DNA from: Parapristionchus giblindavisi
Lineage: Eukaryota; Nematoda; Chromadorea; Rhabditida; Diplogasteridae
NCBI GenBank assembly: GCA_943737045.1
Contig: CALSFV010000005.1
Span: 248,001-312,000, forward strand
Direction of reading: 5' to 3'
Length of the DNA stretch: 64,000 nucleotides
A program made the translations under genes and the position numbers. Numbering within the stretch: position 1 is the stretch's first letter; every line of letters begins with the position of its first letter. Under the pieces are notes generated by a model that was not told the origin of the DNA, made no database searches, and worked only from the letters and a program-made list of their open reading frames with translations. Below are positions 13,057 through 62,475 of this stretch, in pieces.

Positions 13057-13059
13057 GTA

Positions 13060-13688: not shown

Positions 13689-14309
13689 TATGTGTGGGTC
13701 AGGACCCAGAGGATAACTTCCGAAAGCGAGATTGAATCTCTGAGGGTGTGCCTGTGCACAGGACTGCGCCATAACATGAGCGGAGTCAGAAAGATGGCTT
13801 ACGCCGTGCTGAGTCAGGCTAACTGTGGCGATGCACCAGAGAGAGGCTGAGTCAGACTTGGGTGTGTGGGTCAGACACGGAAACAACGAAACTCCTCACC
13901 CTGACCAGGGGGGGAGAGAATGCGAGAGCATAAGGACGGCCAAAGATAACTGGAGAGAACAGCCGTCATGGCGAGCTCTAAGAAAGCATTCTGAAGAAAA
14001 CAGGGGAACTGGGAGTCTATCATACGCAAGGAAGCGCGTGCTTTGATCTTCTCCCCCTTCCCCTGGGTTCCCTCCTTTCTGATTGATTGGGCAGATCAGA
14101 TAGGAAGGGACCTTAGAGAACATGGCGGCTTATGGAGCGCATAGTAGTTTGTGATTGATGAGCAGTGTAGTATAATGCTTTTAGAATGAACCTGATTGTT
14201 ACGTCCTTGCGATACAAAGCAATCTTTGCTCGCGCTCCAGGACTGCGGATTTTTAGCCTTGATGATTCGTCTACTGACTCTGTCGATCTTTTATATCTGT
14301 CTTGTTTAA

Positions 14310-16294
14310 GAGAGATGGCGTTAAGACTCGACCACCCCCCGGACACGTGAGCTAGCAATGAGAACTGGGAGTCCATACTTGGGTGTTAGGAGTGCCCCCG
14401 GCCCTTATTACACAAAACGGCTGAAATTTCCTGTTTGTGCCCTCAGGCTATTAGAAAAAATAATTTTTTAAAAAAACTAAAAAATCATAATTTCTCAAAT
14501 TGTTGAGATGAAGTCTAAATACCATCTGCGATGCGTCTAGAGTACACAGTGCTTGCTAATTCACTATTAGCATCGAATGTGCGTTGATTCCTAAACCACT
14601 TTTTTGACTCAAAGTTTTGGTTTTTTCGGACAAATCATCCTTTGTTTTAGTGAGTGCCCAAAATTTCCGACCAGGTATTGTAGCCTAAGCAATTCTGCAT
14701 TGATTTAACTTAAAACTGGGTTCTTCCCGATCGACCATTTTGTCGAATTTTTTGCTCGAACTTCCGTCATCGATGGTTTTCCCGAACAAATGCTGTATTT
14801 TCCAAACGATTGGTGAAGAATTGTGGTCCACTCAAAGGTTAGAGGTGAGTCAAGTAAAATGACACAAGTAGCCCATCACTTGGATCAATTCGAAAATTTC
14901 GATTTTCATGACCCGGGGGTCATGGTCCGAAAATTTCAAAATTTCTCAAGTTTGAAATGTTTTCATTTATGTGGCTTATTGTGAAGTACTTATGATGTGA
15001 ATAATATTCAGCCTATGCTCAATGGCTGGTCTCTCCTTTCAACCAATTTTCGAAAATGTTTCGAAAATTTTCGTTCTGAATGCGTGTGAAAAATCAGAAT
15101 CGTGTTTGAATCGGTTTCCAACTTGCTTTTTGTAACATTCTGTCTTAGTAGTTTGCAATGTGCATAATCAATATGAAAATCGTTGATTTTCGAAAATTCG
15201 TAAAATTCAATTTGAGTGCCTACTTTCATGGCAAATTTCTATAATATTGCAGTTTTTAGACTCGAATGCTGCGACAATGAGCAAATGACAATGACAATGT
15301 GAAGTTTCATGATGAGTAAACGTAGTAGAACTGGAATCCCGGCATTCGGCTCACTTTTGAAAAATCGATTTCCATGACCCCGGGGTCATGGTAAAAAAAT
15401 ATGAATTTTCGAAAATCAACGATTTTCATATTGATTATGTACATTGCAAAGCACTTAGATAGGATGTTACAGAAAGCAAGTTGGAAACTGATTCAAACAC
15501 AATTCTGATTTTTCGCAAGCAATCAGAATGAAAATTTTCGAAAAAATGGTTGAAAGGAGAGATCGACCATTGAGCATTGGCTGAATATTATTCACATCAT
15601 TAGTACTTCACAATAAGCCACATAAATGAAAACATTTCAAACTTGAGAAATTTTGAAATTTTCAGACCATGACCCCCGGGTCGTGAAAATCGAAATTTTC
15701 AAATTGATCCAAGTGATGGGACTCTTGTGTCATTTTACTCGTCTCACCTCTAAACTTTGAGTGGACCACAATTCCTCACCAATCGTTTGGAAAATACAGC
15801 ATTTGTTCGGGAAACCCATCGATGACGGAAGTTCGAGCAAAAAATTCGACAAAATGGTCGATCGGGAAGAACCCAGTTTTAAGTTTAATCAATGCAGAAT
15901 TGCTTAGGCTACAATACCTGGTCGGAAATTTTGGGCACTCACTAAAACAAGGGATGATTTGTCCGAAAAAACCAAAACTTTGAGTCAAAAAAGTGGTTTA
16001 GGAATCAACGCACATTCGATGCTAATAGTGAATTAGCAAGCACTGTGTACTCTAGACGCATCGCAGATGGTATTTAGACTTCATCTCAACAATTTGAGAA
16101 ATTATGATTTTTTAAAGTTTTTTTTTTAAATTATTTTTTCTAATAGCCTGAGGGCACAAACAGGAAATTTCAGCCGTTTTGTGTAATAAGGGCCGGGGGC
16201 ACTCCTAACACCCAAGTATGGACTCCCAGTTCTCATTGCTAGCTCACGTGTCCGGGGGTGGTCGAATATGATCGAGTCTTAGGGAACAGGCCTC
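14310..16294. mobile_element. TTAA fold-back element F1
   Basis: Arms of about 950 bp face each other around 15300. It is flanked by TTAA (14306-14309 and 16295-16298). The outer ends are somewhat diverged (GAGAGATGGCGTTAAGACTC, versus CCTGTTCCCTAAGACTCGAT when the right end is reversed) but keep the TAAGACTCGA motif of the family. The interior has CATGACCCCGGGGTCATGG-like palindromes, shared with F2. No coding sequence. Confidence 0.6.
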
Positions 16295-16459
16295 TTAATG
16301 TGAATATATTATATATTACAGGGCTGTAGCATTTGAAACTTGAAATAACTATGTTTAAGCTTTCAGAGAGCTTTTTGTACTTTAAACACCTTACTTCCTC
16401 TCAGTGGAGAACCATGACCACTGATAGATTGATTGATATCACACTGTAATCGTAAAGAT

Positions 16460-19489: not shown

Positions 19490-20327
19490 AGCATGAATGA
19501 TGAACAAACGACTTTCATAAAACATGATCAACATGAAAAATGACGTGCTCGACGAGTTCTTTCGAATGCGCATAAACATGTCAAGGTGTCGACTGCTTTT
19601 TTTCAAGCCATCTTCTATTTCTTTGATGAAAGAACAAGGTAATTATAGTTTTTGAGCCATACGATATAGGCGTATTAGCATTGTGCACAAAAGATTTTAC
19701 TACCACTTTACTTAAATTATAAGCGAAATATGTCATAGTTAAACATGCAAATGTACTCATAATATTTGATATTAATGAATCTAAAGTAGTTGTTAGTAGA
19801 GGCTGAAAAACGTGCGAATCTTTCTTGTATATGTCTTGTCTTCTTGTCTTTTCAGACCGTATAAAAGTTGGTCATCTTCACGTCCATTATTCTCAGAATA
19901 GGAGTCTATCGATTTTAAAAATATTTTCCCTCCTTCGACGATGAAATTTTCGCTCTATAAGATCATGCAAACCCTGTGCTGTACTTTTCTTTTTAAAATT
20001 TTAATTAAATTTAAAATGTTTTGTGGAGGTAAAAAAAAGTTTGCGATCGGATCTCCGGACTGTCCAATATCCAGATTTTATTGCTTAGTCATACATGTAA
20101 TTAATTGACTCTAACATTGGACCTAGGTCGCTCCATTTTCTTCTGGTGATCATATTTCGGGAACACGGCACATTTACGTTTCAAGGACCCAGCCCAAATG
20201 AATACCCATTTTGTGTCGGGATAAATGGGGGGTATCCACAAAATATTTTTTTTAAAGAGCTAAACCGGTGAGGTCGATGCCCGACGTCATTGGTTCAACC
20301 CTCGAATCTTACTGACAAGCCCGTGTC
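19490..20327. mobile_element. Old right-hand fragment of a TTAA fold-back element
   Basis: Right end CAAGCCCGTGTC followed by TTAA (20328-20331). The interior matches F3 and F4, for example AGGACCCAGCCCAAATGAAT and TTTGCGATCGGATCTCCGGA. It is more diverged than F2-F4 and no matching left end was seen, so it is an old truncated copy. No gene. Confidence 0.6.
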
Positions 20328-21079
20328 TTAATTCAATTTCTTGTACGAGTCCTAGATAATATGTAATGTTCATTACCCGCATAATCAAGTGTTATTATAA
20401 TTGATATAAAGTAATATCACATTTATGCCTGATAAAAGTTCATTTACTGGTCACATAATGACCAAAACAACCAAATATTTAAAAAAAAATTCACATTTTG
20501 AATGCAAAATGGAACGAAAAAATACAAAACTATACAACCAGCAATCATTCAATAACACCGTAAAAATAACAAGTAAATATACAATAATTAAACATTATCA
20601 ACAAAGTACTGGTTGGAGACGACTACACAAGTTCCGATGAGACTCTTTACATCCTTCTTGTACGCGAGGCATTGGCAGGTCTTGAGCAACGACATGGCAA
20701 TCTTTAAGTATTGATTGATTATACTACAGTATACATTGATATACAGTAATCAAACAATTATCGATAGCTGGCAGTGATCAAGTGTTCAGGAAAATATTGA
20801 AACCAACCTTGGGGTTCTTTTTGGTGCATTCGACCATCATCTCTTGGTACCTCTCGCGTTTGGGCATGCGCATGCGGCATCTGAAAAATATAAAATTATG
20901 AATTTCCCGCCTTGAGACGAATTTAAAATGTACCGTACCCATTGGCAGTGACGCAAGAGTGAGTCTTCTTGTGTAGGCAGTGCTTGGTGCAGTGGAAGAA
21001 TTTTTGGAAACGGCTATACTCGCGCTGGCCCTTGTTCCTGCAACGAAATCATTAGAATTTAGTAGTTCACAAAATAAAT

Positions 21080-24369: not shown

Positions 24370-24780
24370 ACTGCAGGAACTTGTTCGGTTACTGTAGCTG
24401 ATTCGATGACTACGGTAGGGAGGGGCTCGGATACGGTAGCGGCTTCGATGACTACTGTAGGAAGCGGCTCGGTTACGGTAGCTGATTCGATGACTACTGT
24501 AGGGAGAGGCTCGGTTACGGTAGCTGATTCGATAATTACGGTAGGAAGGAGCTCGGTTACGGTAGTTGATTCGATGACTACGGTAGGAAGGGGCTCGGTT
24601 ACGGTAGCTGATTCGATGATTACGGTAGGATGGGGCTCGGTTACGGTAGCTGATTCGATGACTACTGTAGGGAGGGTCTCGGTTACGGTAGCTGATTCGA
24701 TGACTACGGTAGGAAGGGGCTCGGTTACGGTAGCTGATTCGATGATTACGGTAGGGAGGGGCTCGGTTACTGTGATGGTT
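24370..24780 (-). repeat. 42 bp coding minisatellite of family-2 copy A
   Basis: About nine to ten units encoding V-T-E-P-L-P-T-V-V-I-E-S-A-T with third-position and conservative changes. Both strands are open across the array. Copy B has about two units and copy C at least eighteen, so unit number varies greatly between paralogues. Confidence 0.85.
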
Positions 24781-27087: not shown

Positions 27088-27335
27088 ATAATGTGAAAAG
27101 ACCAATTATTGATCTTTGATCTTTGTTAAACCTGGAGAAATCGATAGATATATCAAATGACCATTTATGTACAACGCTAGTTGGGCGAACGTTTGTAATG
27201 AGTCTTAATTTCTTCGGGCCAGGATCAAATTGTTACGATGACCTGATGAAAATTGACTTCGCCCACTTATAACCGACCCCATTATAACTACGCCCCTTTC
27301 TGAAAGATTTGCCAATCAGTCTTCATTATAGCATC
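27088..27335 (+). promoter_or_regulatory. Conserved upstream block of family-1 copy 3
   Basis: Same motif order as the other copies: TTATTGATCTTTGATCTTT, TGTTACGATGACCTGATG, CCACTTATAACC, then AATCAGTCTTCATTATAGCA. It lies about 240 bp before the start codon. Confidence 0.5.
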
Positions 27336-27569
27336 TCTCAAAATCTTTGCCTCGTTTTCTTGGCTTTGCTTAGGAATAAGTAATGCAAAATATGTTACTT
27401 AAACGAAACTAACATTCGTTATCAAAATCGTACGATTGTTCTCCTAACAATAAAAGTAGAGTCTAGGATCAATATTCGGAATATTGTCTTGATAACAGTT
27501 TTCATGACGATTTCTCATTTGCATTCTTTTAATTTCCATATCGCAAAATAATTATTGCTATGCTTTCAG

Positions 27570-28732
27570 ATGCGTTTACTCCCGCTTGTAACTCTGCTCA
27601 TACTATCTGGCACAATCGATTCGGCACCGTTGACCGTTCCTCATTTCACCGAAATGTCCATCGACTCCTTCAAACCTTTCTTCACGCATACCAGAAGCCT
27701 TGAATTCAATGAAACTGACTCCTCTATGCTCGTATGTATTTCACATTTCATTCTTGCTTTCCGCTTTTAAAATTACAAAAAAAATTCAGGAACGACACTG
27801 TACTTGCACTATGAATAATGAATCTGGGGATGTTAAGGCGCCATTCACTTCCATCGGTGACCGCATGGTATTTTTTTATCCTATCGATAAAAAGATGTTC
27901 GCTTTTCATGAAATTTAAAGTAAAGGATGTATATTTGCGGTATACATTTTAACAAAGTTAGAAAAAAAACAAAGAAAATGAATTGTCCGGCGAATGTTTT
28001 CGTGAGTTTGATAAGATAAAAAGGGGTCCAGTTGAGTAAGACGCCTTGTATACCTAATAAAGATTACTTGTGTATAATAATAAAATGGAAAAAAACTCAT
28101 AGCATAAATATCTCTGTTTTTTATCTCTAAAGTTCGCTATATTTTTTCAGAAACATCGGTGTTCCTGCGAATCCTACCGAGTTGAAGTATTTGTAGACGG
28201 TCCTATGGCGTACTATCTCGACAACTCTACCATTGCCATTACAGTAATTCATTTTGGCCTTGTTTTCTTCGTGTTTTCTTATTTTCATTATTTCAGAAGC
28301 AATAGTGGTCGTGTATGCCAAAGGAAGATAAGGCATCTGGCATAATTATGGACGAATCTCGCTCAGTAATTTATCAGTGAATCGATTTATAATCTACGAT
28401 TATTTCAGGGTGAATGGTGCTCTGGTCAGGTCATGGCAGCAAATACAACCACAATTGAAGATATACTAGCCGACGTTCGTATATTATCGGATTGCGTTCC
28501 TAGCGGCAAACAAAGTGTCAGCAATTCTGAGATAAGCAAAGTTTGCGAATGCACGACCTACGAAAGCAATCGGGTAATTACTTTTTTCATCTTCATCTTG
28601 TCATTTATCGATTTCTAATGATATATTTAATTTCAGAAGTATCAATTGTGTACTTGCAAGACCCCCTCCAAGTGCAACGTTATGGACTCAAGCCCATACA
28701 ATCAACTACCGACGAGCCTTATTTGCGTTTGA
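27570..28732 (+). CDS. Family-1 copy 3: secreted cysteine-rich protein with a stop in exon 4
   Basis: Exons 27570-27731, 27790-27867, 28151-28243, 28297-28365, 28409-28573 and 28637-28732, all in phase 0. Signal peptide MRLLPLVTLLILSGTIDS, then HFTEMSIDSFKPF and the NETDS motif. C-x-C pairs occur in exons 2 (CTC), 3 (CSC), 5 (CEC) and 6 (CTCKTPSKC). Exon 4 has in-frame TAG at 28303-28305 where paralogues have CTG. Skipping exon 4 keeps the frame, because all exons are symmetric, and would give about 198 residues. Otherwise this is a pseudogene. The start follows CTTTCAG directly, suggesting trans-splicing. Unlike copy 1, it ends soon after exon 6 begins and has no hydrophobic tail. Confidence 0.65.
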
Positions 28733-29910
28733 TCTTATTGACGAATTGAACCTTTTCTCTTTCTTCCGATTCGATTACTTCGATTCATCCTGTTGTCTTT
28801 TCAATATGTGAATGTTTTTTGTATTGTTGCTTGTAAATGGTTTCGACATTCATTGTGTTGTAATGTCGTATGTTCGATAAATTGAACTGTTGATGTTGAT
28901 GTTGATGTTGTTGTACAATACAATCAACCAATCTTTTTTTCATATCAAGTAAATTGCTTCAGTTCCTCCACTATAGTATTGATCACCATTGTGCATTAAA
29001 GCTGGAGGCTCTCGAATGTCTATGAAAATGCAAAGCATATCTGTTAAGCAAGGGACACGTGATATGCAAGAAATTAGCACGACCATTCATCAATATCGTA
29101 GCGCAGGGGAAAATAAGTGCTCACTAGTAAGCGTAACGTAGTGGGTTCGAAACATATTGCAGAATGTTACAATTTTCAATACTTCGCGCCTTTCCCTGCA
29201 CAATCAGTGATGATTCATTCATGATTCTCGTGATCAATAAACTAAATCAGCATAAAATAATTTATGTATGTCATGTAGAATATCTCTTGCTATCTTTCTG
29301 TCTTCACAGTTTGTTCACGAATAAATTGCTGGGACTCCACCTTTAAAGCCACACCCGATCCATTAATTCGAGTGTTAATTAAGAACGTGTTTGGATAAGG
29401 CAGAAACACTCCGGCAGCTGAAAGAAATATGGTGTGGCCATCTCTGACCAATGACAACATCATAGAAAGCTAGCAAAAATCGCAGACACAATACTTAATA
29501 CATAGATACTTAAGCAAAACCTAGGGATTCTAGGGATGACTAGGACCTAGGGATACGACGAACTAAACAACCCTCGTCATCATAGCTCTACTAATCAAGT
29601 TGAAACGTATTTAATTACATTTTTCATGCATTTGACGATTTCACTTCATGATTGCACTTCACTTCATATTCGATTTCACATACCACAAACCATATATAAT
29701 GAGGACCGTTATCAGATCCGGGAAATAGCCTTGTGAAGCTGAGTGAGACCAGATGTGTATGAAGAAACTTGTTTTTTTTGTATTCAAACGTTTCGGAGAC
29801 TATTTCCCCATAATCGGTGAAATGTAGCTCCAATGAAAAATATGAAAGAAATATGAAATCCGACAAGTGGACTAGAGAGGGCAAGAGCACAACCGTACAC
29901 TTAGATACAA
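28733..29910. other. Downstream flank of copy 3
   Basis: 3' flank with a short TTGATG run near 28881-28911 and otherwise AT-rich sequence. The start resembles the flanks after copies 1, 2 and 4 (GATAAATTGAACTGTTGAT). No gene found. Confidence 0.45.
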
Positions 29911-29914
29911 TTAA

Positions 29915-32130
29915 GAGACCGGCTCGGTAAGACTCGAGCATTTCGACCCCCTGCCGGACATTCGCGAGGAATTTCGATTTGGCACTCAATACTTTCATCA
30001 TAGACACATACCGGGGGGAGACCGATGAAAGTTATAGTGAAAATGCCCTGCGGCTCAAACCCGGCTCACATATGCCGCATAAAATAAAAAATTGAAAAAT
30101 TCATAACTTTTCAATCGCGATAGCTAGGACTTTTATTTCTTTTTATTGGTGAATAACATGTCATGCACTCTTACAAACACAGCTGAACAGTAATATCATA
30201 TCATTCTGGATAAGTTTTTTCGTATCTGATTTTAAGATTTTTCCTCTTCTATCCTCATTGAAGAGAGACGGCAAGCACTGACATAGTACATATTGTAGCC
30301 CTGACAATTATATACATGATGGTCACATTCCCGTAAAAATCCATGTTTTCTGAAACATCGAGAATTGCAGCTGAATGTGAGATATGTGTGATTTGCAAAA
30401 ATCGAAAATTAAATTTCTTGTAAATCGCAAGAGTAAGAGGTAGCTTTATTATGTCATTATACTCGTAGTAATGCGAGTGCACAGGAAAAATATACAAGTA
30501 ATCTCGGACTACATTTTTTTTAAATTAAAAAAAAATCATTATTTTATTTTTATTTTTTCAAATCCCACATTCAGTCGACCGTCAATGCAAGTTGATTCAT
30601 AGGGCGGATGGTGGCTGTTGCATGTGCGTTTGCAGAAACGACTGCAACGTGAAGAATCGTGGTTTCGCAGATCTCGAATTTATTTTTTAATTAACAAACT
30701 TGAATATTTATATGTTTCTTTAATATAAATCGGTTGGAAGGTAGCGTACTGCATCCAAAGCTGTACCATTTTTATCAGTAGGAGTATACGGTATTGAACA
30801 ACCGTAATCGCCAGGAATCGCGAACTGATTTTTTTTCAGTCGATCCATGATTTTCAACCATGACCCGGGGTTCATGGTTGAGAATGGCTGAGGTCGAAAA
30901 ATTCGTGCTGGTCCGAGATCAAATACTATTTGGCATTATATGAACAGTGGGCCAACTTTTATTTTTATGGATACCATAACTCGAATTACCGTAATAGTTA
31001 TGCAAGCATCTGAATTTTGCGAGAATTTCACCACATTATTATAGGATACGGTAGCTAGATTACGGTAATTCGAGTTATGGTATCCATAAAAATATAAGTT
31101 GGACCACTGTTGATATAATGCCACATAGTATTTGCTCTGGGATCATCATGAATTTTCCGACCTCAACCATTCTCAACCATGAACCCGGGGTCATGGTTGA
31201 GAATCATGGGTCGACTGAAAAAAAATCAGTTCGCGATTCCTGGCGATTACGGTTGTTCAATACCGTATACTCCTACTAATAAAAATGGTACAGCTTTGGA
31301 TGCAGTACGCTACCTTCCAACCGATTTATATTAAAGAAACATATAAATATTCAAGTTTGTTAATTAAAAAAATAAATTCGAGATCTGCGAAACGACGATT
31401 CTTCACGTTGCAGTCGTTTCTGCAAACGCACATGCAACAGCCACCATCCGCCCTATGAATCAACTTGCTTTGACGGTCGACTGAATGTGGGGGTTGAAAA
31501 AATAAAAATAAAATAATGATTTTTCTAAATTTTTTAAAAATGTAGTCCGAGATTACTTGTATATTTTTCCTGTGTACTCGCATTACTACGAGTATAATGA
31601 CATAATAAAGCTACCCCTTACTCTTGCGATTTGCAAGAAATTTAATTTTCGATTTTTGCAAATTACACATATCTCACATTCAGCTGCAATTCTCGATGTT
31701 TCAGAAAAAATGGATTTTTACGGGAATGTGACCATCATGTACATAATTGTCAGGGCTACAATATGTACTATGTCAGTGCTTGCCGTCTCTCTTCAATGAG
31801 GATAGAAGAGGAAAAATCTTAAAATCAGATACGAAAAAACTTATCCAGAATGATATGATATTACTGTTCAGCTGTGTTTGTAAGAGTACATGACATGTTG
31901 TTCACCAATATAAAGAAATAAAAGTCCTAGCTATCGCGATTGAAAAGTTATGAATTTTTCAATTTTTTATTTTATGCGGCATATGTGAGCCGGGTTTGAG
32001 CCGCAGGGCATTTTCACTATAACTTTCATCGGTCTCCCCCCGGTTTGTGTCTATGATGAAAGTATTGAGGGCCAGATCGAAATTCCTCGCGAATGTCCGG
32101 ACCATGCTCGAGTCTTACCGAGCCGGTCTC
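29915..32130. mobile_element. TTAA fold-back element F2 (2.2 kb)
   Basis: Almost perfect palindrome centred near 31030. Ends GAGACCGGCTCGGTAAGACT on both sides, flanked by TTAA (29911-29914 and 32131-32134). Arms are about 1.1 kb, with few mismatches and very little spacer. The inner part has ACCATGACCCGGGGTTCATG-type palindromes. An 80-codon frame occurs in both arms (30497-30255 minus and 31557-31799 plus), but nothing links it to a known protein. No transposase. Confidence 0.82.
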
Positions 32131-32275
32131 TTAAAGAATGATTCTGAGTACAAACATGAGGGCGTTTAAAGTGTATATCGAATTTTTTTATATTTTCCAT
32201 CGTTCGACGCGGAATTTGTTGCTCAATAAGAGGATGTAAAAACTGTACTGCTTTTTGTTTCAAAAGTATAATTAA

Positions 32276-33770
32276 GACACCGGCTCGGTAAGATTCGAGG
32301 GTTGAGCCAGTGACCCCGGACATCGACCTCACCGATTTGGCTCAAAATTTTTTTGTGGATACCCCCATGGCCTCCCATCACAAAATGGGTATTCATTTGG
32401 GCTGGGTCCTTGAAACATAAATGTGGCGGGTTCTCGAAATTTGAAAACTCGATTTTCACCAAAAAAAAGTGGAGCGACCTAGGTTCAATGTTAGTGTCGA
32501 TTAATTACAAGTATGCCTAGACAACAAAAACTCGCTATAGGACGGTTCGGATATCCGATCGCAAACTGATTTTTTTACCTCCTCAAAACACATTAAAATT
32601 AATTAAAATTTTAAATTACAAAATCGCACAATTATTTTTGCCTTATCTTATAGAGCAAAAAATTCCGCGTCGAATGAGGTTAAAAAATAAAAAATCGATA
32701 GACCCCTATTTTGAGAAAAATGGGCCTGACCATGACTCGAAAATATTTTTGTTTTTAAAACCCCTCATGTTTGTACTCATATTGAAGAGCTCGTCGAGTA
32801 GAACAACTTTCATGTTGAACGTTTTGGCTGAAACTCATGTACAAGAGAGATACACACGATTTTGCACAAAAATATTTTTATTTCGCTTAACTCAAAATTG
32901 GTCACAAAATCGTGTGTATCTCTCTTGTACATGAGTTTCAGACAAAACGTTCAACATGAAAGTTGTTCTACTCAAAAAGATCTTCAATATGAGCACAAAC
33001 ATGAGGTGGTCTGAAAACAAAAATATTTTCGAGTCATGGTCAGGCACATTTTTCTCAAAATAGGGGTCTATCGATTTTTTAACTTTTACACTCATTCGAC
33101 GCGGAATTTTTAGCTCTATAAGATAAGGTAAAGATTGGACTGCGATGCTTTGTTTTAAAAATATTTTATTTTCGTTTTCCTCAAAATTGCAGGAAAACGT
33201 GTGAAACTCTCTTGTACATGAGTTACAAACAAAACGCTCAACATTAAAGTTGTTCTACTCGACGATCTCTTCAATATGAGTACAAACATGAGGGGTTTTA
33301 AAAACAAAAATATTTTCGAGTCATGGTCAGGCCCATTTTTCTCAAAATAGGGGTTTATCGATTTTTCAATTTTTGCCCTCTTTCGACGCGGAATTTTTTG
33401 CTCTATAAGATATGGCAAAAATAATTGTGCGATTTTGTAATTTAAAATTTTAATTAATTTTAATGTGTTTTGAGGAGGTTAAAAAATCAGTTTGCGATCG
33501 GATATCCGAACCGTCCTATAGCGAGTTTTTGTTGTCTAGGCATACTTGTAATTAATCGACACTAACATTGAACCTAGGTCGCTCCACTTTTTTTTGGTGA
33601 AAATCGAGTTTTCAAATTTTGAGAACCCGCCACATTTATGTTTCAAGGACCCAGCCCAAATGAATACCCATTTTGTGATGTGGGGCCATGGGGGTATCCA
33701 CAAAAAAATTTTGAGCCAAATCGGTGAGGTCGATGTCCGGCACTACCGGGAGTCTTTCTGAGCCGGTGTC
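32276..33770. mobile_element. TTAA fold-back element F3 (1.5 kb)
   Basis: Ends GACACCGGCTCGGTAAGATT and, on the other side, the inverse of a GACACCGGCTCAGAAAGACT variant. It is flanked by TTAA (32272-32275 and 33771-33774). Interior modules of about 300 bp (GACGCGGAATTTTT near CTCTATAAGAT) occur three times, one plus and two minus. F3 sits just after F2 in remnants of an older related element. Confidence 0.8.
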
Positions 33771-33774
33771 TTAA

Positions 33775-34090
33775 ATTTAGAATGTTTTGCGGGGGGGGGG
33801 GGGGGTAAAAACAGGTTGCGATCGATTCTCCGGAGAGTCCAATAGAGGGGTTTTATTGTCTAAAAAACGGTTTTCCGTTGTCCATGCTACGACCGTTGTC
33901 GACGACGACTGATGAAATGGAGTTTTCAAATTTCGAGAAGCCGGCGCACCTATGTTTCATGGACCCAGCACAAATGAAAACCCATTTTGTGATGGGGGCC
34001 CATGGGGGTATCCACAAAATTTTTTTTGATCCAAATCGGTGAGGTCGATGTCGTCATTGGTACAACCCTCGAATCTTACTGAGCCCCTGT
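33775..34090. mobile_element. Remnant of an older TTAA-family element
   Basis: Diverged half-copy with AAACCCATTTTGTGATGGGG and CCCATGGGGGTATCCACAAA, ending CTCGAATCTTACTGAGCCCC. With 32131-32275 it appears to be the body into which F2 and F3 inserted. Includes an uninterrupted G run at about 33789-33805. Confidence 0.6.
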
Positions 34091-34600: not shown

Positions 34601-35830
34601 AAACTGAAAAAAATAAACATGATTGCTCGTGAACATAAATATGTCTTCCTCTGAATTGCAGAAGAGTAGACAGATAATGAAGTGATCGGCCGATGTATTT
34701 CTATACCCGATGGGGGCGTGGTCATAGTGGGCGGAGTCTTAAAGGACCGGGTCTTGCAATGCGCGAGCGTGACCCATGTCTCCTATTTTTGCACACTATT
34801 TCATCGATCTATGTCAAAATATACTTGCGCTACTGCTTACCAAGGCCCGAGAGAATACGAACAGTGACCGTAGGAATATTGCAATTATATGATCAATATG
34901 AATACATGAAATAAAAGAAAAAAAACAGAATAATCGTCGATGTCGAGAAAAAAACCTATAATGGATGTATCAGTGTATTGTCTATAAAAAATCATCATAA
35001 GTATCAAAAATATATCAAAGACTAATTTATTTGTACACTAGCAATCTATCTCTCGCATCAGTCGGTTGTAAAATTAGTTCAATCAATTTTAAATATCTCT
35101 TTAAATAGTTATTTATGGTACATTTTTCAATTCTTCACTGGAAAGGAATAACTTTTATCTTTATTTTTATCATCAAATTAACACTCTATTTCATTCATTA
35201 CAAGCACTTTGATTGTATTTTGTTCTATTAAAAAAGATTAATTTACAGATACCTGGAAGTGTGCATATTTCAGAATTTCATTAGCACAATGGAAATTCAG
35301 TTTGATTTAAAGATGGAGACCCACGAGTTTTTCGTAATAAGACTGTTCGGATAGAATGATAGAGATTCATCACACGAATCGAAAGACATATCTGATATTG
35401 ATTCCCGATCTGTCTAAAGCTCACTGTGCGCATTGAAAGTATAAATTTTCAAGGCATGTATAGAGTGCCCATCCTTTTTTTTGCATACTTGCTCTCTCAT
35501 TTTCTCATTATCCCTTACGCCAATTACCATATAATATAAACAATATCCAACATGCTCAAGGGTCCCCTTCTTTAATTCTAAAAAATAAATAAAACCGGAC
35601 GTAGGGCCTTATCAGGCAGTCTCTTCTACAATTTCTTGTAGTTGTCAGAGAATATCGAGAAAGTGTGTGAATTTAATGTAGAAAATATCTTTTCAAAGAA
35701 GAAGTCGCCTCTTTTTCAAGTTCTTCTTGTGACTTTTGAATTCTACTTTAGTTCGACAAATATTCTTCTTGCCAGTGATAATTTTACGACTAATAACTAC
35801 ATAATATATATGATACCAAAAAAAACTATA
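34600..35830. other. Duplicated upstream region
   Basis: Close copy of 25505-26450 with small indels, plus an extra segment at about 35310-35560 that resembles 41690-41850. No gene. It shows that the gene-pair unit was duplicated in tandem. Confidence 0.65.
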
Positions 35831-38332: not shown

Positions 38333-41008
38333 ATGCGTCTGCTACCGCTGGTAACTGTGTTCATACTAGCAGGTTCGATCGACTCGGCACCGTTGACAGT
38401 CCCTCATTTCACCGAAATGTCCATCGAGTCCTTCAAGCCTTTCATTACGATTACCAATGGCTTTATATTCAATGAAACAGACTCCACTATGCTTGTATGT
38501 GTTTCATATTTGATCTTTGATTTTTTTAAATTACAACATATGCAGGAGCAACAGTGCATTTGCACTATGGTGGAGAATAATGACGGTGGGGAAGTTAAGG
38601 CTCCATCCTCTACCATCGGAAGCCGCACGGTATTTTTATGTTCTTTTCTGTTTTTAATCTCCAAAGTTCTCAATATTTTTCAGAAACATCGGTGTTCTTG
38701 CGGATCTATCCGAGTTGAAGAATATTTGTACAATCCTTTCAATCTCTTTGTCGGAAACTCTACCATTACCGTAATTAATTTTGATCTTGATTTCGTCATT
38801 TTTTTCTAATTTTTTTATTATTTCAGAAGCAACTGTGGTCGTGTATGAAAAAGCAAGATAAGATGTATGCCCACTTAAGACACCGGCTCAGTAAGATTCG
38901 AGGGTTGAGCCGGTGACCCCGGACATCGACCTCACCGATTTGGCTCAAAAATTTTTTGTGGATACCCCCATGGGCCCCGATCACAAAATGGGTATTCATT
39001 TGGGCTGGTTCCTTGAAACACAGATGTGGCGGGTTTTCGAAATTTGAAAACTCGATTTTCACCGAAAAAAATGGAGCGATCTAGGACCAATGTTAGTGTC
39101 GATTAATTATAAGTATAAATAGACAACAAAAACTGGCTATACGACGGTCCGGAGATCCGATCGCAAACTGATTTTTTACCTCCTTAAAACATTCTAAAAT
39201 TAATTAAAATTTTAAAACAAAAAAAGTGCAGTCCAATTTTTTTCTCATCTTATAGAGCAAAAAATTCCGCGTCGAATGAGCGACAAAATTGAAAAATCGA
39301 AAGATACCTATTTTGAGAAAAATGGACCTGAAGATGACCCGAAAATATTTTTGTTTTCGAAACTCCTCATGTTTGTACTCATATTGAAGAGCTCGTCGAG
39401 TAGAACAACTTTCATGTTGAACGTTTTGTCTGAAACTCATGTACAAGAGAATTACATGAATTAAGATTTACTGGATCCTAATCGTTTAGATTGCTTGTAT
39501 CTTGAGAACAAACGACTTTCATAGAATACGACCAACATGAGAAATGATGTACTCGACGAGTTCTTTAAAATGAGTATAAACATGGCAAGGTTTCGACAAC
39601 TTTTTTTTCCATGACCACTTTAGAGACCATGTTTTTCAGAATAAGGGCCGACAATTTTTTTCGTGAAACAACAAATTAAGTATGGATTTTTGAGTTCTAC
39701 AATATAGGCGTAATCAATTTGTGCACAAAAAATATTTTACTTTCGTTTAACTCAAAATTGGGTGAACAACCGTGTGAATAAATAAAACTCATGTAATTCT
39801 CTTGTACACGAGTTTCAGACAAAACGTTCAACATGAAAGTTGTTATACTCGACGAGCTCATCAATATGAGTACAAACATGAGGGGTTTTGAAAACAAAAA
39901 TATTTTCGGGTCATCTTCAGGTCCATTTTTCTCAAAATAGGTATCTTTCGATTTTTCAATTTTTTCGCACATTCGACGCGGAATTTTTTTCTCTATAAGA
40001 TGCGGCAAAATTTGGACTGCACTTTTTTCTTTTAAAAAACGTTTATTTTCGTTTTACTCAAAATTAGCAGGTAAACGTGTGAAACTCTCTTCTACATGAG
40101 TTTCAGACATAACGTACAACATGAAAGTTGTTCTACTCGACGAGCTCTTCAATATGAGTACAAACATGAGGGGTTTTGAAAACAAAAATATTTTCGGGTC
40201 ATCTTCAGGTCCATTTTTCTCAAAATAGGTATCTTTCGATTTTTCAATTTTTTCGCTCATACGACGCGGAATTTTTTGCTCTATAAGATCAGATAAAAAT
40301 TGGACTGCACTTTTTTGTTTTAAAATTTTAATTAATTTTAGAATGTTTTAAGGAGGTAAAAAAATCAGTTTGCGATCGGATCTCTGGACCGTCGTATAGC
40401 CAATTTTTGTTGTCTATTTACACTTATAATTAATCGACACTAACATTGGTCCTAGGTCGCTCCATTTTTTTTCGGTGAAAATCGAGTTTTCAAAATTCGA
40501 AAACCCGCCACATCTGTGTTTCAAGGAACCAGCACAAATGAATACCCATTTTGTGATGGGGACCCATGGGGGTATCCATAAAAATTTTTTGGGCCAAATC
40601 GGTGAGGTCGATGTCCGGCACTTCCTGGAATCTCACTGAGCCGGTGTCTTAAACGACCAATCCAGCACCGTAATTTAGCAATGTTGTGTAACGATTTATA
40701 ATCTAAGATTGTTATAGGGTGAATGGTGCTCTAGCCAGTTCATGGAAGCTAAAACAATCACAATTGAATATGTAAAAGCCAACAGTCACACATTATCGGA
40801 TTGCATTCCTAGCGGCAAACAACGTATCAACAATTCTGAGACAACTAAAGTATGCGAATGCATGACTTACGGAAGCGAACTGGTAATTACTTTTTCATTT
40901 TCTATCTTTTCATTTATCAATTTCTAATGATTTAAACGATTTTAGAGAAATCAATTTTGTATTTGCAAGACCCCATCCAAGTGTGAATCTAAGGTCTTTC
41001 CCATATAA
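38333..41008 (+). pseudogene. Family-1 copy 4, exon 4 disrupted by F4
   Basis: Exons 38333-38494, 38546-38629, 38684-38770, 38827-38878 with 40649-40669 (exon 4 split by F4), 40718-40882 and 40946-41008. Signal peptide MRLLPLVTVFILAGSIDS, then PLTVPHFTEMSIESFKPF, NETDS, QQCICTMV and KHRCSCGS. Exon 5 starts GEWCSSQFMEAKT and exon 6 has CICKTPSKC. All other exons are open. F4 adds 1.77 kb and an early stop to exon 4. If splicing skips exon 4 or removes F4 the rest stays in frame, so it may not be completely dead. Start follows TTTACAG. Confidence 0.78.
38879..40648. mobile_element. TTAA fold-back element F4 inside exon 4
   Basis: Ends GACACCGGCTCAGTAAGATT and the inverse of GACACCGGCTCAGTGAGATT, flanked by TTAA (38875-38878 and 40649-40652). 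Copy 5 gives the empty site CCCACTTAAACGACC, which proves the insertion and the four-base duplication. The interior has 300 bp modules as in F3, plus a unique middle near 39465-39700. Confidence 0.92.
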
Positions 41009-43928: not shown

Positions 43929-44985
43929 TTATATGGGAAAGTTCTCAGCTTCACACTTGGATGGGGTCTTGCAGATACAATATTGAGTGTTCTGAAATTA
44001 AATAAATCATTATAAATCGATAAATGAAAAGATAGAAGATGAAAAAGTAATTACCAGTTCGCTTCCGTAAGTCATGCATTCGCATATTTTACTTATCTCA
44101 GAATTGTTGATACGTTGTTTGCCGCTAGGAATGCAATCCGATAATATGTGACTGTTGGCTTTTACATATTCAATTGTGATTGTCTTAGCTCCCATGAACT
44201 GGCTAGAACACCATTCACCCTGAAACAATCTTAGATTATAAATCGTTGCACAAGATTGTTAAATTGCGGTGCTAGATTGGTCGTTTAAGTGGGCATATAT
44301 CTTATCTTCCTTTGACATACACGACCACAGTTGCTTCTGAAACAATGAAAATTAGAAAAATGACGAAATCATGATCAAAATTAATTACGGTAATGGTAGA
44401 GTTGCCGACAAAGAGATTGAAAGGATTGTACAGATATTCTTCAACTCGGATAGATCCGCAAGAACACCGATGTTTCTGAAAAATATAGAGAACTTTGGAG
44501 ATTAAAAAGAGAGGTGTTACATATGAGGTACATTTTTATATGATACATTTAAAAAAAATCACTTTACAAAAACCTTTTTTTAAACTGCGTTGTTGTGAAA
44601 TATATAGATACCGCAAATATAAATCCTTTTTTTTAAATTTCATGAAAAGCATTTTAATAGACATTAATACGAAAAATACCGTGCGGCTTCCAATGGTAGA
44701 GTATGGCGCCTTAACGTCCCCACCGCCATTTTTCTCAACCATAGTGCAAGTGCACTGTTGCTGCTGCAATTTTGTAATTTGAAAAAAATAAATTAATGAT
44801 CAAAGATCAAATATCAAAAACATACAAGCATAGTGGAGTCTGTTTCATTGAATATAAGGTTATAGATATGTGAAGAAAGGTTTGAAGGAGTCGATGGACA
44901 TTTCGGTGAAATGAGGGACGGTCAATGGTGCCGAATCGATTGTGCCAGCTAGTATCAGCAGAGTTACCAGCGGGAGTAGACGCAT
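43929..44985 (-). pseudogene. Family-1 copy 5, 2 bp deletion in exon 1
   Basis: Minus-strand exons 44985-44826, 44763-44680, 44475-44389, 44336-44268, 44219-44055 and 43991-43929. Exons 2-6 are open: QQQCTCTMV, KHRCSCGSIRVEEYLYNPF, KQLWSCMSKEDK, GEWCSSQFMGAKT, CICKTPSKC. Exon 1 is 160 bp, where copies 3 and 4 have 162, and reads into TAA soon after SIDSFKPFFTYL. The exon-4 donor is GC rather than GT (ACC|GCAATT). This copy has an intact exon 4 and supplies the empty site for F4. Start follows GCTCACAG-type sequence (CTCACAG). Confidence 0.78.
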
Positions 44986-48969: not shown

Positions 48970-51647
48970 TTATATGGGAAAGACCTTAGATTCACACTTG
49001 GATGGGGTCTTGCAAATACAAAATTGATTTCTCTAAAATCGTTTAAATCATTAGAAATTGATAAATGAAAAGATAGAAAATGAAAAAGTAATTACCAGTT
49101 CGCTTCCGTAAGTCATGCATTCGCATACTTTAGTTGTCTCAGAATTGTTGATACGTTGTTTGCCGCTAGGAATGCAATCCGATAATGTGTGACTGTTGGC
49201 TTTTACATATTCAATTGTGATTGTTTTAGCTTCCATGAACTGGCTAGAGCACCATTCACCCTATAACAATCTTAGATTATAAATCGTTACACAACATTGC
49301 TAAATTACGGTGCTGGATTGGTCGTTTAAGACACCGGCTCAGTGAGATTCCAGGAAGTGCCGGACATCGACCTCACCGATTTGGCCCAAAAAATTTTTAT
49401 GGATACCCCCATGGGTCCCCATCACAAAATGGGTATTCATTTGTGCTGGTTCCTTGAAACACAGATGTGGCGGGTTTTCGAATTTTGAAAACTCGATTTT
49501 CACCGAAAAAAAATGGAGCGACCTAGGACCAATGTTAGTGTCGATTAATTATAAGTGTAAATAGACAACAAAAATTGGCTATACGACGGTCCAGAGATCC
49601 GATCGCAAACTGATTTTTTTACCTCCTTAAAACATTCTAAAATTAATTAAAATTTTAAAACAAAAAAGTGCAGTCCAATTTTTATCTGATCTTATAGAGC
49701 AAAAAATTCCGCGTCGTATGAGCGAAAAAATTGAAAAATCGAAAGATACCTATTTTGAGAAAAATGGACCTGAAGATGACCCGAAAATATTTTTGTTTTC
49801 AAAACCCCTCATGTTTGTACTCATATTGAAGAGCTCGTCGAGTAGAACAACTTTCATGTTGTACGTTATGTCTGAAACTCATGTAGAAGAGAGTTTCACA
49901 CGTTTACCTGCTAATTTTGAGTAAAACGAAAATAAACGTTTTTTTAAAAGAAAAAAGTGCAGTCCAAATTTTGCCGCATCTTATAGAGAAAAAAATTCCG
50001 CGTCGAATGTGCGAAAAAATTGAAAAATCGAAAGATACCTATTTTGAGAAAAATGGACCTGAAGATGACCCGAAAATATTTTTGTTTTCAAAACCCCTCA
50101 TGTTTGTACTCATATTGATGAGCTCGTCGAGTATAACAACTTTCATGTTGAACGTTTTGTCTGAAACTCGTGTACAAGAGAATTACATGAGTTTTATTTA
50201 TTCACACGGTTGTTCACCCAATTTTGAGTTAAACGAAAGTAAAATATTTTTTGTGCACAAATTGATTACGCCTATATTGTAGAACTCAAAAATCCATACT
50301 TAATTTGTTGTTTCACGAAAAAAATTGTCGGCCCTTATTCTGAAAAACATGGTCTCTAAAGTGGTCATGGAAAAAAAAGTTGTCGAAACCTTGCCATGTT
50401 TATACTCATTTTAAAGAACTCGTCGAGTACATCATTTCTCATGTTGGTCGTATTCTATGAAAGTCGTTTGTTCTCAAGATACAAGCAATCTAAACGATTA
50501 GGATCCAGTAAATCTTAATTCATGTAATTCTCTTGTACATGAGTTTCAGACAAAACGTTCAACATGAAAGTTGTTCTACTCGACGAGCTCTTCAATATGA
50601 GTACAAACATGAGGAGTTTCGAAAACAAAAATATTTTCGGGTCATCTTCAGGTCCATTTTTCTCAAAATAGGTATCTTTCGATTTTTCAATTTTGTCGCT
50701 CATTCGACGCGGAATTTTTTGCTCTATAAGATGAGAAAAAAATTGGACTGCACTTTTTTTGTTTTAAAATTTTAATTAATTTTAGAATGTTTTAAGGAGG
50801 TAAAAAATCAGTTTGCGATCGGATCTCCGGACCGTCGTATAGCCAGTTTTTGTTGTCTATTTATACTTATAATTAATCGACACTAACATTGGTCCTAGAT
50901 CGCTCCATTTTTTTTCGGTGAAAATCGAGTTTTCAAATTTCGAAAACCCGCCACATCTGTGTTTCAAGGAACCAGCCCAAATGAATACCCATTTTGTGAT
51001 CGGGGCCCATGGGGGTATCCACAAAAAATTTTTGAGCCAAATCGGTGAGGTCGATGTCCGGGGTCACCGGCTCAACCCTCGAATCTTACTGAGCCGGTGT
51101 CTTAAGTGGGCATACATCTTATCTTGCTTTTTCATACACGACCACAGTTGCTTCTGAAATAATAAAAAAATTAGAAAAAAATGACGAAATCAAGATCAAA
51201 ATTAATTACGGTAATGGTAGAGTTTCCGACAAAGAGATTGAAAGGATTGTACAAATATTCTTCAACTCGGATAGATCCGCAAGAACACCGATGTTTCTGA
51301 AAAATATTGAGAACTTTGGAGATTAAAAACAGAAAAGAACATAAAAATACCGTGCGGCTTCCGATGGTAGAGGATGGAGCCTTAACTTCCCCACCGTCAT
51401 TATTCTCCACCATAGTGCAAATGCACTGTTGCTCCTGCATATGTTGTAATTTAAAAAAATCAAAGATCAAATATGAAACACATACAAGCATAGTGGAGTC
51501 TGTTTCATTGAATATAAAGCCATTGGTAATCGTAATGAAAGGCTTGAAGGACTCGATGGACATTTCGGTGAAATGAGGGACTGTCAACGGTGCCGAGTCG
51601 ATCGAACCTGCTAGTATGAACACAGTTACCAGCGGTAGCAGACGCAT
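48970..51647 (-). pseudogene. Family-1 copy 6, mirror of copy 4
   Basis: Exons 51647-51486, 51434-51351, 51296-51210, exon 4 split by F4' (51153-51102 and 49329-49309), 49260-49096 and 49032-48970. The predicted protein segments equal those of copy 4, including the F4-disrupted exon 4. Only about 170 bp of its own upstream DNA remains before the palindrome junction, so the conserved promoter block is missing. Expression would need another promoter. Confidence 0.78.
49330..51101. mobile_element. F4', mirrored copy of fold-back element F4
   Basis: Same ends and TTAA flanks as F4 (49326-49329 and 51102-51105), carried here by the inverted duplication rather than by a separate insertion. A two-base length difference from F4 was noted. 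Confidence 0.9.
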
Positions 51648-56291: not shown

Positions 56292-56295
56292 TTAA

Positions 56296-56941
56296 GAGTC
56301 CCGATCTGTAAGACTCGACCATTTCGGCCAGATTTCGGACATCGCGCCAAGAATTTTGATTCAGGCCATTCCACTTTATGGGTGTAGGTTACCTTGGGCC
56401 CTGATTACAAAATGACAATCAAAGTGGCCCTTGCAGTGGAAAGCGGCGCGCCAGGTGGGCGCCAAGTTGAAAAATTCGATTTTCATATTTTTTCAACCGA
56501 ACAAGCTAGAGTCCAAATTTCTTCGGCACTGTGTTAGGCATGCCCAATGTGCACAGAAACATTATTGAGATTAATTGTAAGCAATTCCTAGACTGATTTT
56601 TTACACGAATTTTCGGTTTTTATTTTCGATTTCTCGGCATCTCAATTTCAATTCCGCAAAAGTTCTCAAGTATATCCATGGAGCCCAACTACTAGTGCAT
56701 GTAACCCTGCTAGGCGGGAATCGATCTTGGATTGCGCGTGTCGGAAAAGCTGTATTTCCAAACGATTAGTGCGGAGTTATGGTCTACTCAAAGTTTAGAG
56801 GTGAGACCAGTAAAACGACACAAAAAGCCCATCACTTGGATCAATTTAAAAATTTCGTGTGAGTGGAATGGCCTGAATCAAAATTCTTGGCGCGATGTCC
56901 GAAATCTGGCCGAAATGGTCGAGTCTTACAGATCGGGACTC
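56296..56941. mobile_element. TTAA fold-back element F5 at the apex of inverted duplication 2
   Basis: Ends GAGTCCCGATCTGTAAGACT on both sides with TTAA outside (56292-56295 and 56942-56945). The arms match for about 80 bp, around a 486 bp unpaired middle. The right half of the middle resembles F1 near 14790-14900 (CCCATCACTTGGATCAAT), and the left half resembles F3/F4 sequences. The flanks outside F5 are inverse copies of each other, so F5 is the turning point of the giant palindrome. Confidence 0.8.
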
Positions 56942-57449
56942 TTAATGAAGAGACTGGAGAATTCAATGAATATGTTATGCAACGTTTAGGGTTTTCTATA
57001 TCACTTATATTTCGGAAATAATCTTTAATCACTTTCGCATTGAACATTTGGCACTTCTTCGGTTTTTTTTTTATTAGTCAGAAAAATTTTATTTGTAATA
57101 CTGCTTATGACTCCTTTGTTCCATCTTATTTTTGGACATATAACACATCGTCTATTATTACATGAAGATCCAATATAATCAGAATATTCTCCCAATGTGA
57201 CAACTGCTCTACCTTCTTCCGTTCTAACAAGGAGTCTCTTATGTCTTAAGGTGGCGAAAACTGACGATTTATAGCTTATGTGAAAGCCCTTTCTCTGAAG
57301 AATAAGAATATATGTTTAAATAATTCGGAAGAGCTCTGTACATGGATATTAAAAAATCCAAAGTTTGAGCAATTTCTGCCTTGAAATTCCTGTGTAATGG
57401 CCGTTGAATTGGCGTACAATGATGGGCTACTTCTCCACGCTCTCTCTCT

Positions 57450-61265: not shown

Positions 61266-61509
61266 ATTGTAAAGGTCAACAGTTGTATTATTTGACTAGT
61301 AACAATTGTGATAAAAGTCCTGAACTCATTCTCGCTTGTTCCTATCATTCAAAGATTTTTTTGTGTGATTTCTCTTGTCAGAACATATAAACAATAAACA
61401 TACAACTTTTATGAATTATAAAGGAAGAGACAAAGGGAGAGTTTAAAAAATAGTTGCGTGAGCATTTTTCTGACAAAAGCTTTAATAAATCTAAAGCGAT
61501 CCATTATAA

Positions 61510-62465
61510 GAGACCGGCTCGGTAAGAATCGAGCATTTTGACCCCATGCCGGCCATTCGCGAGGACTTTCGATTCGTCTCTCAATACTTTCATCAAAGAC
61601 ACATACCGGGGGCAGAGCGATGAAAGTAATAGTGAAAAAAAAACCGGCTCACATATTTCTCATTAAATAAAAAATTGAAAAAATACATATCTTTTCAATC
61701 GTGAGGTTTTTTATTTTTTTATTGGTGAATAAAATGTCATGCACCCTTATAAACACTGTAGAACAATAATATCATATCGTTCTGAATATGTTTTTTCGTG
61801 TCTGATTTTCAAATTTTTCGTCTTCTATCCTCATTGACGAGCTAGCCCCAGTAATGGAATAGTGCATATTGTAGCCCTGACGATTTTGCACATGGTGGTC
61901 ATATTCCCTTGGTCAGCCAACATTTAGCAGGCGGCGAGAATTGCAACGGAATTTTTTTCTTGAAATTCGCAAGAGTAAAAGGTAGCTTTATTATGTCATT
62001 TCACTCGAAGTGATGTGCGCACACATAAAAAATATACAAATAGAATCAGACTACAAGAAAATTGAGAAAAAAATAAATTGAGGAAAATAATTATTTTATT
62101 TTTATTTTTTCAACTTTCACATTGAGTCGATCGTCAAGTCAAATTGAATCATAGAGCTGATACATGTCCATTAAGTGAAAACGAGTGCCACGTGAAGAAT
62201 CGTCGTTTCGCAGATCTCGAATTTTTTTTAAAAAATTATCAAATTTGAACATTTATATGTTTCTTTCATCGTTTCGTAAATTCCAACGCGTATACGCTAC
62301 AATTATTCAGCTATTCGCACGAGTATATAGATCAACAAACGATTTGTAGCCCTGACGATTTTTCAGAGGCATCGAGAATTGCAACAGAATGTGAGATATG
62401 TGTAAGTTGCAAAAATCGAAAATAAAATTTCTTGAAATTCGCAAGAGTAAGATGTAGCTCTATGA
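61510..62465. mobile_element. Truncated TTAA-family element F6
   Basis: Starts GAGACCGGCTCGGTAAGAAT and follows the left half of F2 (CATACCGGGGGCAGAGCGATG near 61605, ATATTGTAGCCCTGAC near 61870). A second piece of the same F2 region repeats at about 62340-62460. It stops where the minisatellite of family-2 copy C begins. No right end or TTAA there. Confidence 0.65.
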
Positions 62466-62475
62466 TATCATTTTT

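What the first reader, a model, noticed from the sequence alone, without database searches (positions are those of the whole stretch)
29915..32130. Family of giant palindromic elements flanked by TTAA
At least five complete elements (F1 14310-16294, F2 29915-32130, F3 32276-33770, F4 38879-40648, F5 56296-56941) and several fragments share ends close to GA[CG]ACCGGCTC[AG]GTAAGA followed by TTAA. They are nearly whole-length inverted repeats with internal modules in both orientations and no transposase. TTAA duplication is known for piggyBac and Sola3, but these termini are not ones I recognise. They could be a new fold-back family mobilised by such an enzyme.
Basis: partly seen in the sequence, partly recalled or inferred. 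Interest (0 to 1): 0.85.

Follow-up and report, generated by a model that had tools for sequence, protein, structure and literature searches.

The report
Recently active palindromic TTAA transposon family
The window holds members of a large family of mobile DNA elements that are almost perfect mirror-image palindromes, jump into TTAA sites, carry no transposase gene found so far, and were moving very recently in this nematode genome.

Summary
F2 (29915-32130, TTAA outside both ends) is a loop-less palindrome of 2.2 kb, its strands matching at 94%. Its 18-base tip occurs 2089 times in the 251-Mb genome, 2009 of them beside TTAA. Joined flanks match unfilled paralogues across one TTAA-type site for F4 and four other insertions: TTAA is duplicated on insertion. 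Two copies identical over 2223 bases have unrelated flanks: movement is very recent. Inner arms are 95-99% alike within copies where copies differ by 8-15%, while left and right tips stay distinct: the arms evolve in concert.

Corrections: F5 is the mirrored centre of a larger palindrome; F1 is a diverged relative. No coding partner was found. Tips 5'-GA...TC-3' fit Kolobok (RR...YY) rather than piggyBac, and the genome holds a THAP/DDE Kolobok-type gene starting at TTAA with a tip found 1749 times. That tip differs from the fold-back tips, so the mobilising enzyme is inferred. 15 of that gene's 16 relatives are from Pristionchus, so the host is probably a diplogastrid nematode.

The parts
29911..29914 (.). 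TTAA target duplication, left of F2
   Evidence: sequence; self-alignment 29911-32134
29915..32130 (.). F2, family A fold-back element, palindromic over its whole length
   Evidence: family A copies compared
29911..31022 (+). F2 left arm with TTAA (inner limit = midpoint, approximate; starts TTAAGAGACCGGCTCGGTAAGACTCGAGCATTTCGACC)
   Evidence: arms I1, I3, I5, I7
31023..32134 (-). F2 right arm with TTAA (inner limit = midpoint, approximate; rc starts TTAAGAGACCGGCTCGGTAAGACTCGAGCATGGTCCGG)
   Evidence: arms I1, I3, I5, I7
32131..32134 (.). TTAA target duplication, right of F2
32272..33774 (.). F3, family B element with its two TTAA; arms 32272-32862 and 33194-33774, 93.9% alike; inner 287-base direct repeat
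38875..40652 (.). F4, family B element with its two TTAA; arms 38875-39456 and 40080-40652, 93.3% alike
44085..44484 (-). paralogous empty site of F4: joined F4 flanks with a single TTAA align across it over 404 columns at 93.3%, TTAA intact
49326..51105 (.). second copy of F4 within the inverted duplication of the region
14306..16298 (.). F1, diverged member with its two TTAA; arms 14328-15202 and 15400-16265, 94.4% alike; tips GAGAGATGGCGTTAAGA / GAGGCCTGTTCCCTAAGA
56292..56945 (.). F5: mirrored end of a related element at the centre of palindrome 56011-57227; not an independent complete insertion
61507..62472 (+). fragment related to F2 (74-75% over 61507-62269, 88% over 62359-62472), tip GAGACCGGCTCGGTAAGA next to ATAA
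51819..51835 (-). terminus remnant (GATACCGGCTCGGTAAG on the - strand) at the border of two giant palindromes
19870..20333 (.). family B fragment
33915..34085 (.). family B fragment
35560..35575 (-). one end of the separate Kolobok-related MITE family (TTAA + AGAAGGGGACCC); not part of the fold-back family
   Evidence: C5:283560-283575, window starts at C5:248001

Best explanation
F1-F4 belong to a family of non-autonomous fold-back DNA transposons with subfamilies A (about 2.2 kb, with shorter derivatives), B (about 1.5-2.3 kb) and C (most often about 1 kb). A transposase supplied in trans recognises the roughly 20-base tips, cuts the element out and pastes it into TTAA, duplicating those 4 bases (duplication and unfilled sites shown; cut-and-paste inferred). 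The enzyme is most likely a Kolobok-type THAP/DDE transposase of a lineage whose coding copy was not found (inferred). Palindromy is maintained because the arms of one copy correct each other, by gene conversion or by repair or replication with template switching inside the hairpin. The outermost bases escape this and keep distinct left and right versions, possibly because the enzyme needs two different ends (homogenisation shown as a pattern; its mechanism and the reason inferred).
For: 2009 of 2089 exact 18-base tips lie beside TTAA. In 34 fetched copies in which both ends were recognised, 34 of 34 have TTAA on both sides; 28 of these were chosen because both ends matched a pattern containing TTAA. 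Mate ends not so chosen: 6 of 6 found without asking for TTAA (L039, L040, L041, L042, L044, L048) and 3 of 3 found with a loose pattern that includes it (L062, L063, L065). Unfilled paralogous sites for F4, L010, L020, L032, L035. L010 and L012 identical over 2223 bases; 11 of 18 family A copies have a neighbour at 99.3% or more, flanks unrelated. Arms within a copy 95.6% on average against 90.4% between left arms of different copies, 19 copies; in columns 300-450, 99.0% against 85.6%. Arms agree in 86.2% of informative cells against 57.4% when shuffled among 18 copies. Family B, 12 copies: columns 0-100, left with left 92.4% but within copy 88.4%; columns 300-500, within copy 95-96% but left with left 85-86%. 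19 of 19 family A copies have one end of each type. RR...YY tips plus TTAA characterise Kolobok in PMC9587614 (passages). A gene with THAP (4e-7) and a weak MULE match (1e-4, below Pfam's cut-off) in the same genome starts at TTAA+AG, and four 372-373-base MITEs with that tip match its first part over 263-276 columns at 73-76%.
Against: No coding copy with these tips was found. Copies with longer spacing hold nested retroelements or other fold-backs, judged by reading translations and self-alignments, not by domain scans (L017, L048, L060, L061); the 17-kb pair of ends in L045/L046 was compared with F2 and read for open frames only and stays unresolved. Four fetched tips with an unusual next base were family A sequence. 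The Kolobok-type gene has different tips (AGAAGGGGACCC); its C229 copy loses likeness to C27 inside the gene, its C27 copy has stops in one exon, and no right end was recognised. PF13843 and PF20700 gave nothing, and PF20700 missed even the known gene, so they exclude little. In family A the tip difference is small (first 150 columns: within copy 96.9%, left with left 96.1%, left with right 94.9%), and in family B the last block (columns 500-590) does not show the excess (within 92.7%, left with left 93.7%).
Confidence: 0.6

Rival explanations
1. Same fold-back elements, but mobilised by a piggyBac-type transposase.
For: TTAA duplication; the nematode family PALTTAA2 is listed as PALTTAA2/PiggyBac in C. 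elegans and C. briggsae (PMC1431705, passages).
Against: Tips begin with GA, not with the pyrimidine-rich piggyBac start (recalled; contrast stated in PMC9587614). PF13843 gave 0 matches in the genome, though no control rang.
Confidence: 0.15
2. Same elements, mobilised by a Sola3-type or an undescribed TTAA-specific transposase.
For: Sola3 is listed among superfamilies with MITEs (PMC5199201, passages); its TTAA duplication is recalled. Nothing found here excludes it.
Against: No Sola3 gene was seen, but none was searched for: no model or sequence was at hand.
Confidence: 0.2
3. The palindromes are artefacts of inverted-duplication errors in the assembly or of amplified DNA.
For: The window and C2 hold inverted duplications of 99.85-99.9% identity, and F5 is mirrored together with its flanks.
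Against: 0 of 28 copies tested have mirrored outside flanks (ungapped, 300 bases a side); F1-F4 flanks match their mirror at 64-81 of 280 bases; the arms of F1-F4 differ by about 6-7% and many copies share the same ends at TTAA.
Confidence: 0.03
4. Arms are alike within copies because each subfamily arose separately by a new inverted duplication, not by continuing conversion.
For: Family A falls into clusters of near-identical copies, and arms are exclusive sisters in only 7 of 19 copies.
Against: 19 of 19 family A copies carry one end of each of the same two types, and the 12 family B copies likewise show two end types; separate new duplications of one end would erase this.
Confidence: 0.25

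Closest known systems
Kolobok superfamily non-autonomous elements (for example Xenopus T2-MITEs)
   Same: TTAA duplication, RR...YY tips (PMC9587614 passages; PMC6004289 passages), non-coding copies; a Kolobok-type gene and related MITEs are in this genome
   Different: Palindromes over the whole length with arms of about 0.6-1.1 kb; tips GAGACCGG/GACACCGG differ from AGGRR of T2 and from AGAAGGGGACCC of the local Kolobok; no coding partner known
PALTTAA palindromic families of Caenorhabditis
   Same: Nematode, TTAA, palindromic, non-coding (read from the name and recalled)
   Different: No sequence at hand to compare; annotated PALTTAA2/PiggyBac (PMC1431705 passages)
Galileo (P superfamily) and Foldback of Drosophila
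   Same: Long arms, 98-100% identity between the arms of one copy, and arm growth explained by repair from the other arm (PMC3573991 passages)
   Different: 7-base duplications, other superfamily, middle with transposase sequence in some copies
Tm1 Mutator/Foldback of root-knot nematodes
   Same: Nematode fold-back-like family with non-coding groups (PMC3169594 passages)
   Different: 9-base duplications, composite arms with short tandem repeats, Phantom/Mutator-type transposase identified

Membership tests
Kolobok | 4-base TTAA target duplication | tested here: met
   2009 of 2089 tips; unfilled sites
Kolobok | tips 5'-RR and YY-3' | tested here: met
   GA...TC in A, B, C tips
Kolobok | THAP/DDE transposase encoded by a full-length relative with the same tips | tested here: inconclusive
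   Kolobok-type gene found, but with tip AGAAGGGGACCC; no coding copy with these tips
piggyBac | TTAA target duplication | tested here: met
piggyBac | tips starting with CC/pyrimidines | tested here: not met
   tips start GA; the piggyBac rule is recalled, contrast
piggyBac | DDE_Tnp_1_7 transposase in the genome | tested here: inconclusive
   0 matches, no control rang
Sola3 | tips and transposase of Sola3 | not testable with these tools
   no sequence or profile at hand; tip sequence not in the passages seen and one search gave a listing only
Foldback-type elements (structural class) | long inverted arms filling most of the element | tested here: met
Foldback-type elements (structural class) | mobility (target duplications, many sites) | tested here: met
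PALTTAA of Caenorhabditis | sequence likeness to the named consensus | not testable with these tools
   Repbase/Dfam not at hand

The most novel reading that the evidence does not exclude
A fold-back lineage of the Kolobok superfamily in diplogastrid nematodes, still moving, in which the inner arms of each copy are rewritten from one another while two different end sequences are kept. It would be a natural system for watching hairpin-driven concerted evolution under an asymmetric-end requirement of a TTAA transposase.
Probability: 0.4. Interest if true: 0.55.

Novelty: new member of a known kind. Interest (0 to 1): 0.42.

Why it matters
Long palindromes are unstable DNA (general knowledge), yet a loop-less 2.2-kb palindrome and its relatives have left 2009 exact ends at TTAA in one genome, with identical copies at separate sites. 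The family makes two questions testable: how such hairpins are copied intact, and why tips resist the homogenisation that rewrites the rest. It may also offer a transposon substrate for a Pristionchus-like nematode, and fold-back copies near inverted duplications may promote rearrangements as Galileo does (inference).

Tried and rejected
Autonomous partner: copies with long spacing (L017, L048, L060, L061) were read and hold nested retroelements, a gag-like frame between short direct repeats, or other fold-backs; L045/L046 stays unresolved. Tips with a purine as next base: 18 found, 4 newly fetched, one more is L017; all family A sequence. The third THAP hit, C249, carries no such tip within 6 mismatches in 9.9 kb. 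The 706-base repeats flanking the C27 gene look like a TA-inserting fold-back (TACAGTAGCGCCC; superfamily recalled), not Kolobok ends. A second pair of Kolobok-type tips at C229 (stretch positions 14434 and 14748) is a short element of its own, not the right end of the gene. PF13843, PF20700 and RF00198 gave nothing and no control rang. The tip was not found in IMG/VR (0 matches; records near the window's genome may be left out there). Rfam at gathering scores gave nothing in the window. DNA folding of the first 1000 bases of F2 (z -3.2) adds little beyond the palindrome. Papers: no paper in the held library has both Pristionchus and Kolobok; 2 have Kolobok and foldback, seen as listing and start of abstract only; PMC9297572 on P. 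pacificus repeats has 0 occurrences of Kolobok, piggyBac and palindrom in the main text (term search); PMC5395297 was listed for PALTTAA2, but its main text gave 0 occurrences. Rows dropped before counts: 19 of 26 two-ended family A copies were used (L014, L015, L017, L026, L027, L039, L048 left out for length or inserts), 18 (L042 also left out), 12 family B copies, leaving out L021 (duplicate of L020), the second F4 copy, L001 (same place as L028) and L043 (one end recognised). In one search, 5 of 20 loci showed only one end (L038, L043, L045, L046, L047), 1 of 4 (L064), 1 of 20 (L028).

Full report
What is there. With its two TTAA it spans 29911-32134 and aligns with its own reverse complement over its whole length (2239 columns, 93.97%). 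F3 (32272-33774) and F4 (38875-40652) share its 28 terminal bases at 89-93% and little else that BLAST finds. F4 occurs again at 49326-51105 because the region is an inverted duplication of 99.9%. F1 (14306-16298) has TTAA on both sides but tips that differ at many places. F5 lies at the centre of a palindrome that includes 281 bases of outside flank on either side (56011-56375 against 56862-57227, 99.7%; flanks 99.6%), so it shows one end twice.

Genome scale. The window is C5:248001-312000 of a 251.4-Mb, 703-contig genome. The exact 18-mer GASACCGGCTCRGTAAGA occurs 1051 + 1038 times; with TTAA directly outside 1012 + 997 times, that is 2009 of 2089. The reversed control patterns gave 0. A third group of tips (mostly TTAAGAGGCCGTTTG[TC]GTAAGA) gave 95 + 94 ends with a pattern made to leave out the A and B consensus tips; the 100 listed places include many inverted pairs about 1 kb apart, together with some A- and B-like variants.

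Insertion. Among 34 fetched copies in which both ends were recognised, 34 of 34 have TTAA on both sides. Twenty-eight of them were chosen by both ends with a pattern holding TTAA, so the fairer figures are the mate ends not so chosen (6 of 6 without asking for TTAA; 3 of 3 with a loose pattern that includes it) and 2009 of 2089 tips. L020 and L021 are an inverted duplicate pair (99.85% over 2687 bases), so 33 are distinct. F4's flanks joined with a single TTAA align to window 44085-44484 over 404 columns at 93.3%, with TTAA in the empty copy. Of 28 fetched copies tested the same way against the sequence in hand, 5 (L010, L020, its duplicate L021, L032, L035) found an unfilled paralogue spanning the junction. 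The closest to L010, a neighbouring repeat unit, has TTAA (96.2% over 396 bases); the older paralogues of the others have TGAA, TTCA or TTAT at that place. These are paralogues, not alleles.

Recent movement. In 18 family A copies, 11 have a neighbour at 99.3% or more; L010 and L012 are identical over 2223 bases; the 200-base flanks of nearest pairs agree at 21-33%, as unrelated DNA does.

Arms. In 19 family A copies arms within a copy are 95.6% alike, left arms of different copies 90.4%; the difference is largest at columns 300-450 (99.0% against 85.6%) and small in the first 150 columns (96.9% against 96.1%) and at the centre. Left and right arm of a copy are exclusive sisters in 7 of 19 copies; for the other 12 the smallest clade holding both arms has 4 to 12 arms. 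At 185 informative columns arms agree in 2853 of 3310 cells, 86.2%, against 57.4% after shuffling arms among copies. All 19 copies have one end of each of two types. In 12 family B copies the tips (columns 0-100) are more alike among left ends (92.4%) than within copies (88.4%), while columns 300-500 show the reverse (95-96% within, 85-86% among left arms); the last block, columns 500-590, shows no excess (92.7% against 93.7%). So the arms are homogenised inside each copy and the tips keep two versions. This resembles Galileo, where arms of one copy are 98-100% alike and repair from the other arm is proposed (PMC3573991, passages). Conversion, template switching and spread from homogenised source copies are not separated by these data.

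Which enzyme. Kolobok makes TTAA duplications and, unlike piggyBac, has tips 5'-RR and YY-3' (PMC9587614, passages; PMC6004289, passages). The tips here are GA...TC. A THAP search found 3 places. Two of them, C229 and C27, are copies of one gene. An exon chain typed from both has THAP (4e-7) and a weak MULE match (1e-4, under Pfam's cut-off) and residues laid out as in the Kolobok description: DGSFDS, TDRH, DPWH, VESVN (motif reading mine; the C/DxxH signature is). Its 16 homologues are 15 Pristionchus proteins and one tick protein; the best is P. fissidentatus at 50%. The likeness of the two gene copies begins at TTAA|AGAAGGGGACCC. That 16-mer occurs 841 + 908 times, these two included; many of the 100 listed places are inverted pairs about 372 bases apart. 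Of five fetched, four are 372-373 bases long and match the first part of the gene copies over 263-276 columns at 73-76%; the fifth carries an insert. They are relatives of this Kolobok element. A Kolobok system acting at TTAA is therefore, or was recently, present in this genome. Its tips differ from those of the fold-back family, its copies are broken or truncated, and no right end was recognised, so it is a candidate lineage, not the demonstrated mobiliser. PF13843 (piggyBac) gave 0 matches but the tool warned that no control rang; PF20700 missed even the known gene. A search with a Pristionchus protein did not complete.

Known kinds. A TTAA family named PALTTAA2 is on record in Caenorhabditis (PALTTAA2/PiggyBac; PMC1431705, passages; palindromic structure recalled), and fold-back-like elements are known in Meloidogyne (Tm1, PMC3169594, passages). 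In the held library no paper has both Pristionchus and Kolobok, and the P. pacificus repeat paper does not use the words Kolobok, piggyBac or palindrom in its main text. I could not compare with Repbase or Dfam. I file the family as a new member of a known structural kind, with Kolobok as the most likely superfamily.

Noticed in passing
38162-42831 with 47043-51818, and 51819-61526: Two giant palindromes lie end to end; the first has arms 99.0-99.9% alike. Their common border falls inside the last 17 bases of a fold-back terminus (51819-51835), and the mirrored terminus at 61510 starts a family A fragment: a possible rearrangement breakpoint in an element end, or an assembly effect.
   Followed up: partly
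L020 and L021 (C2:98088-103999): A family B copy and its flanks are present twice in inverted order at 99.85% over 2687 bases.
   Followed up: partly
2275-2822, 13058-13690, 5278-6306, 17087-17533, 35824-37323, 43030-43487, 57224-58131: Other long palindromes without likeness to the F family apart from one 25-base match; two begin TACAGT, as TA-inserting mariner-type elements may (recalled). The window is rich in palindromes of several families.
   Followed up: partly
35560-35575; genome-wide: An abundant MITE family, often about 373 bases (TTAA + AGAAGGGGACCC, 1749 exact ends), related to the Kolobok-type gene at C27/C229.
   Followed up: partly
21292-23622 (-): 776-residue open frame with a reverse transcriptase domain (PF00078, 4e-30).
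   Followed up: no
24360-24770, 62478-63272, 63898-64000: Arrays of a 42-base tandem repeat at distant places of the window, mostly 85-93% alike between arrays.
   Followed up: no
54061-55730 and 58411-59282: Long 8-base tandem arrays (AGAGAGAC / TCTGTCTC) inside the arms of the second giant palindrome.
   Followed up: no
2913-3144, 7239-7857, 17879-19404, 26457-28951, 37317-41207, 43922-45590: A diverged repeated unit several kb long, recurring along the window, into which F4 inserted; possibly a tandem gene family.
   Followed up: no
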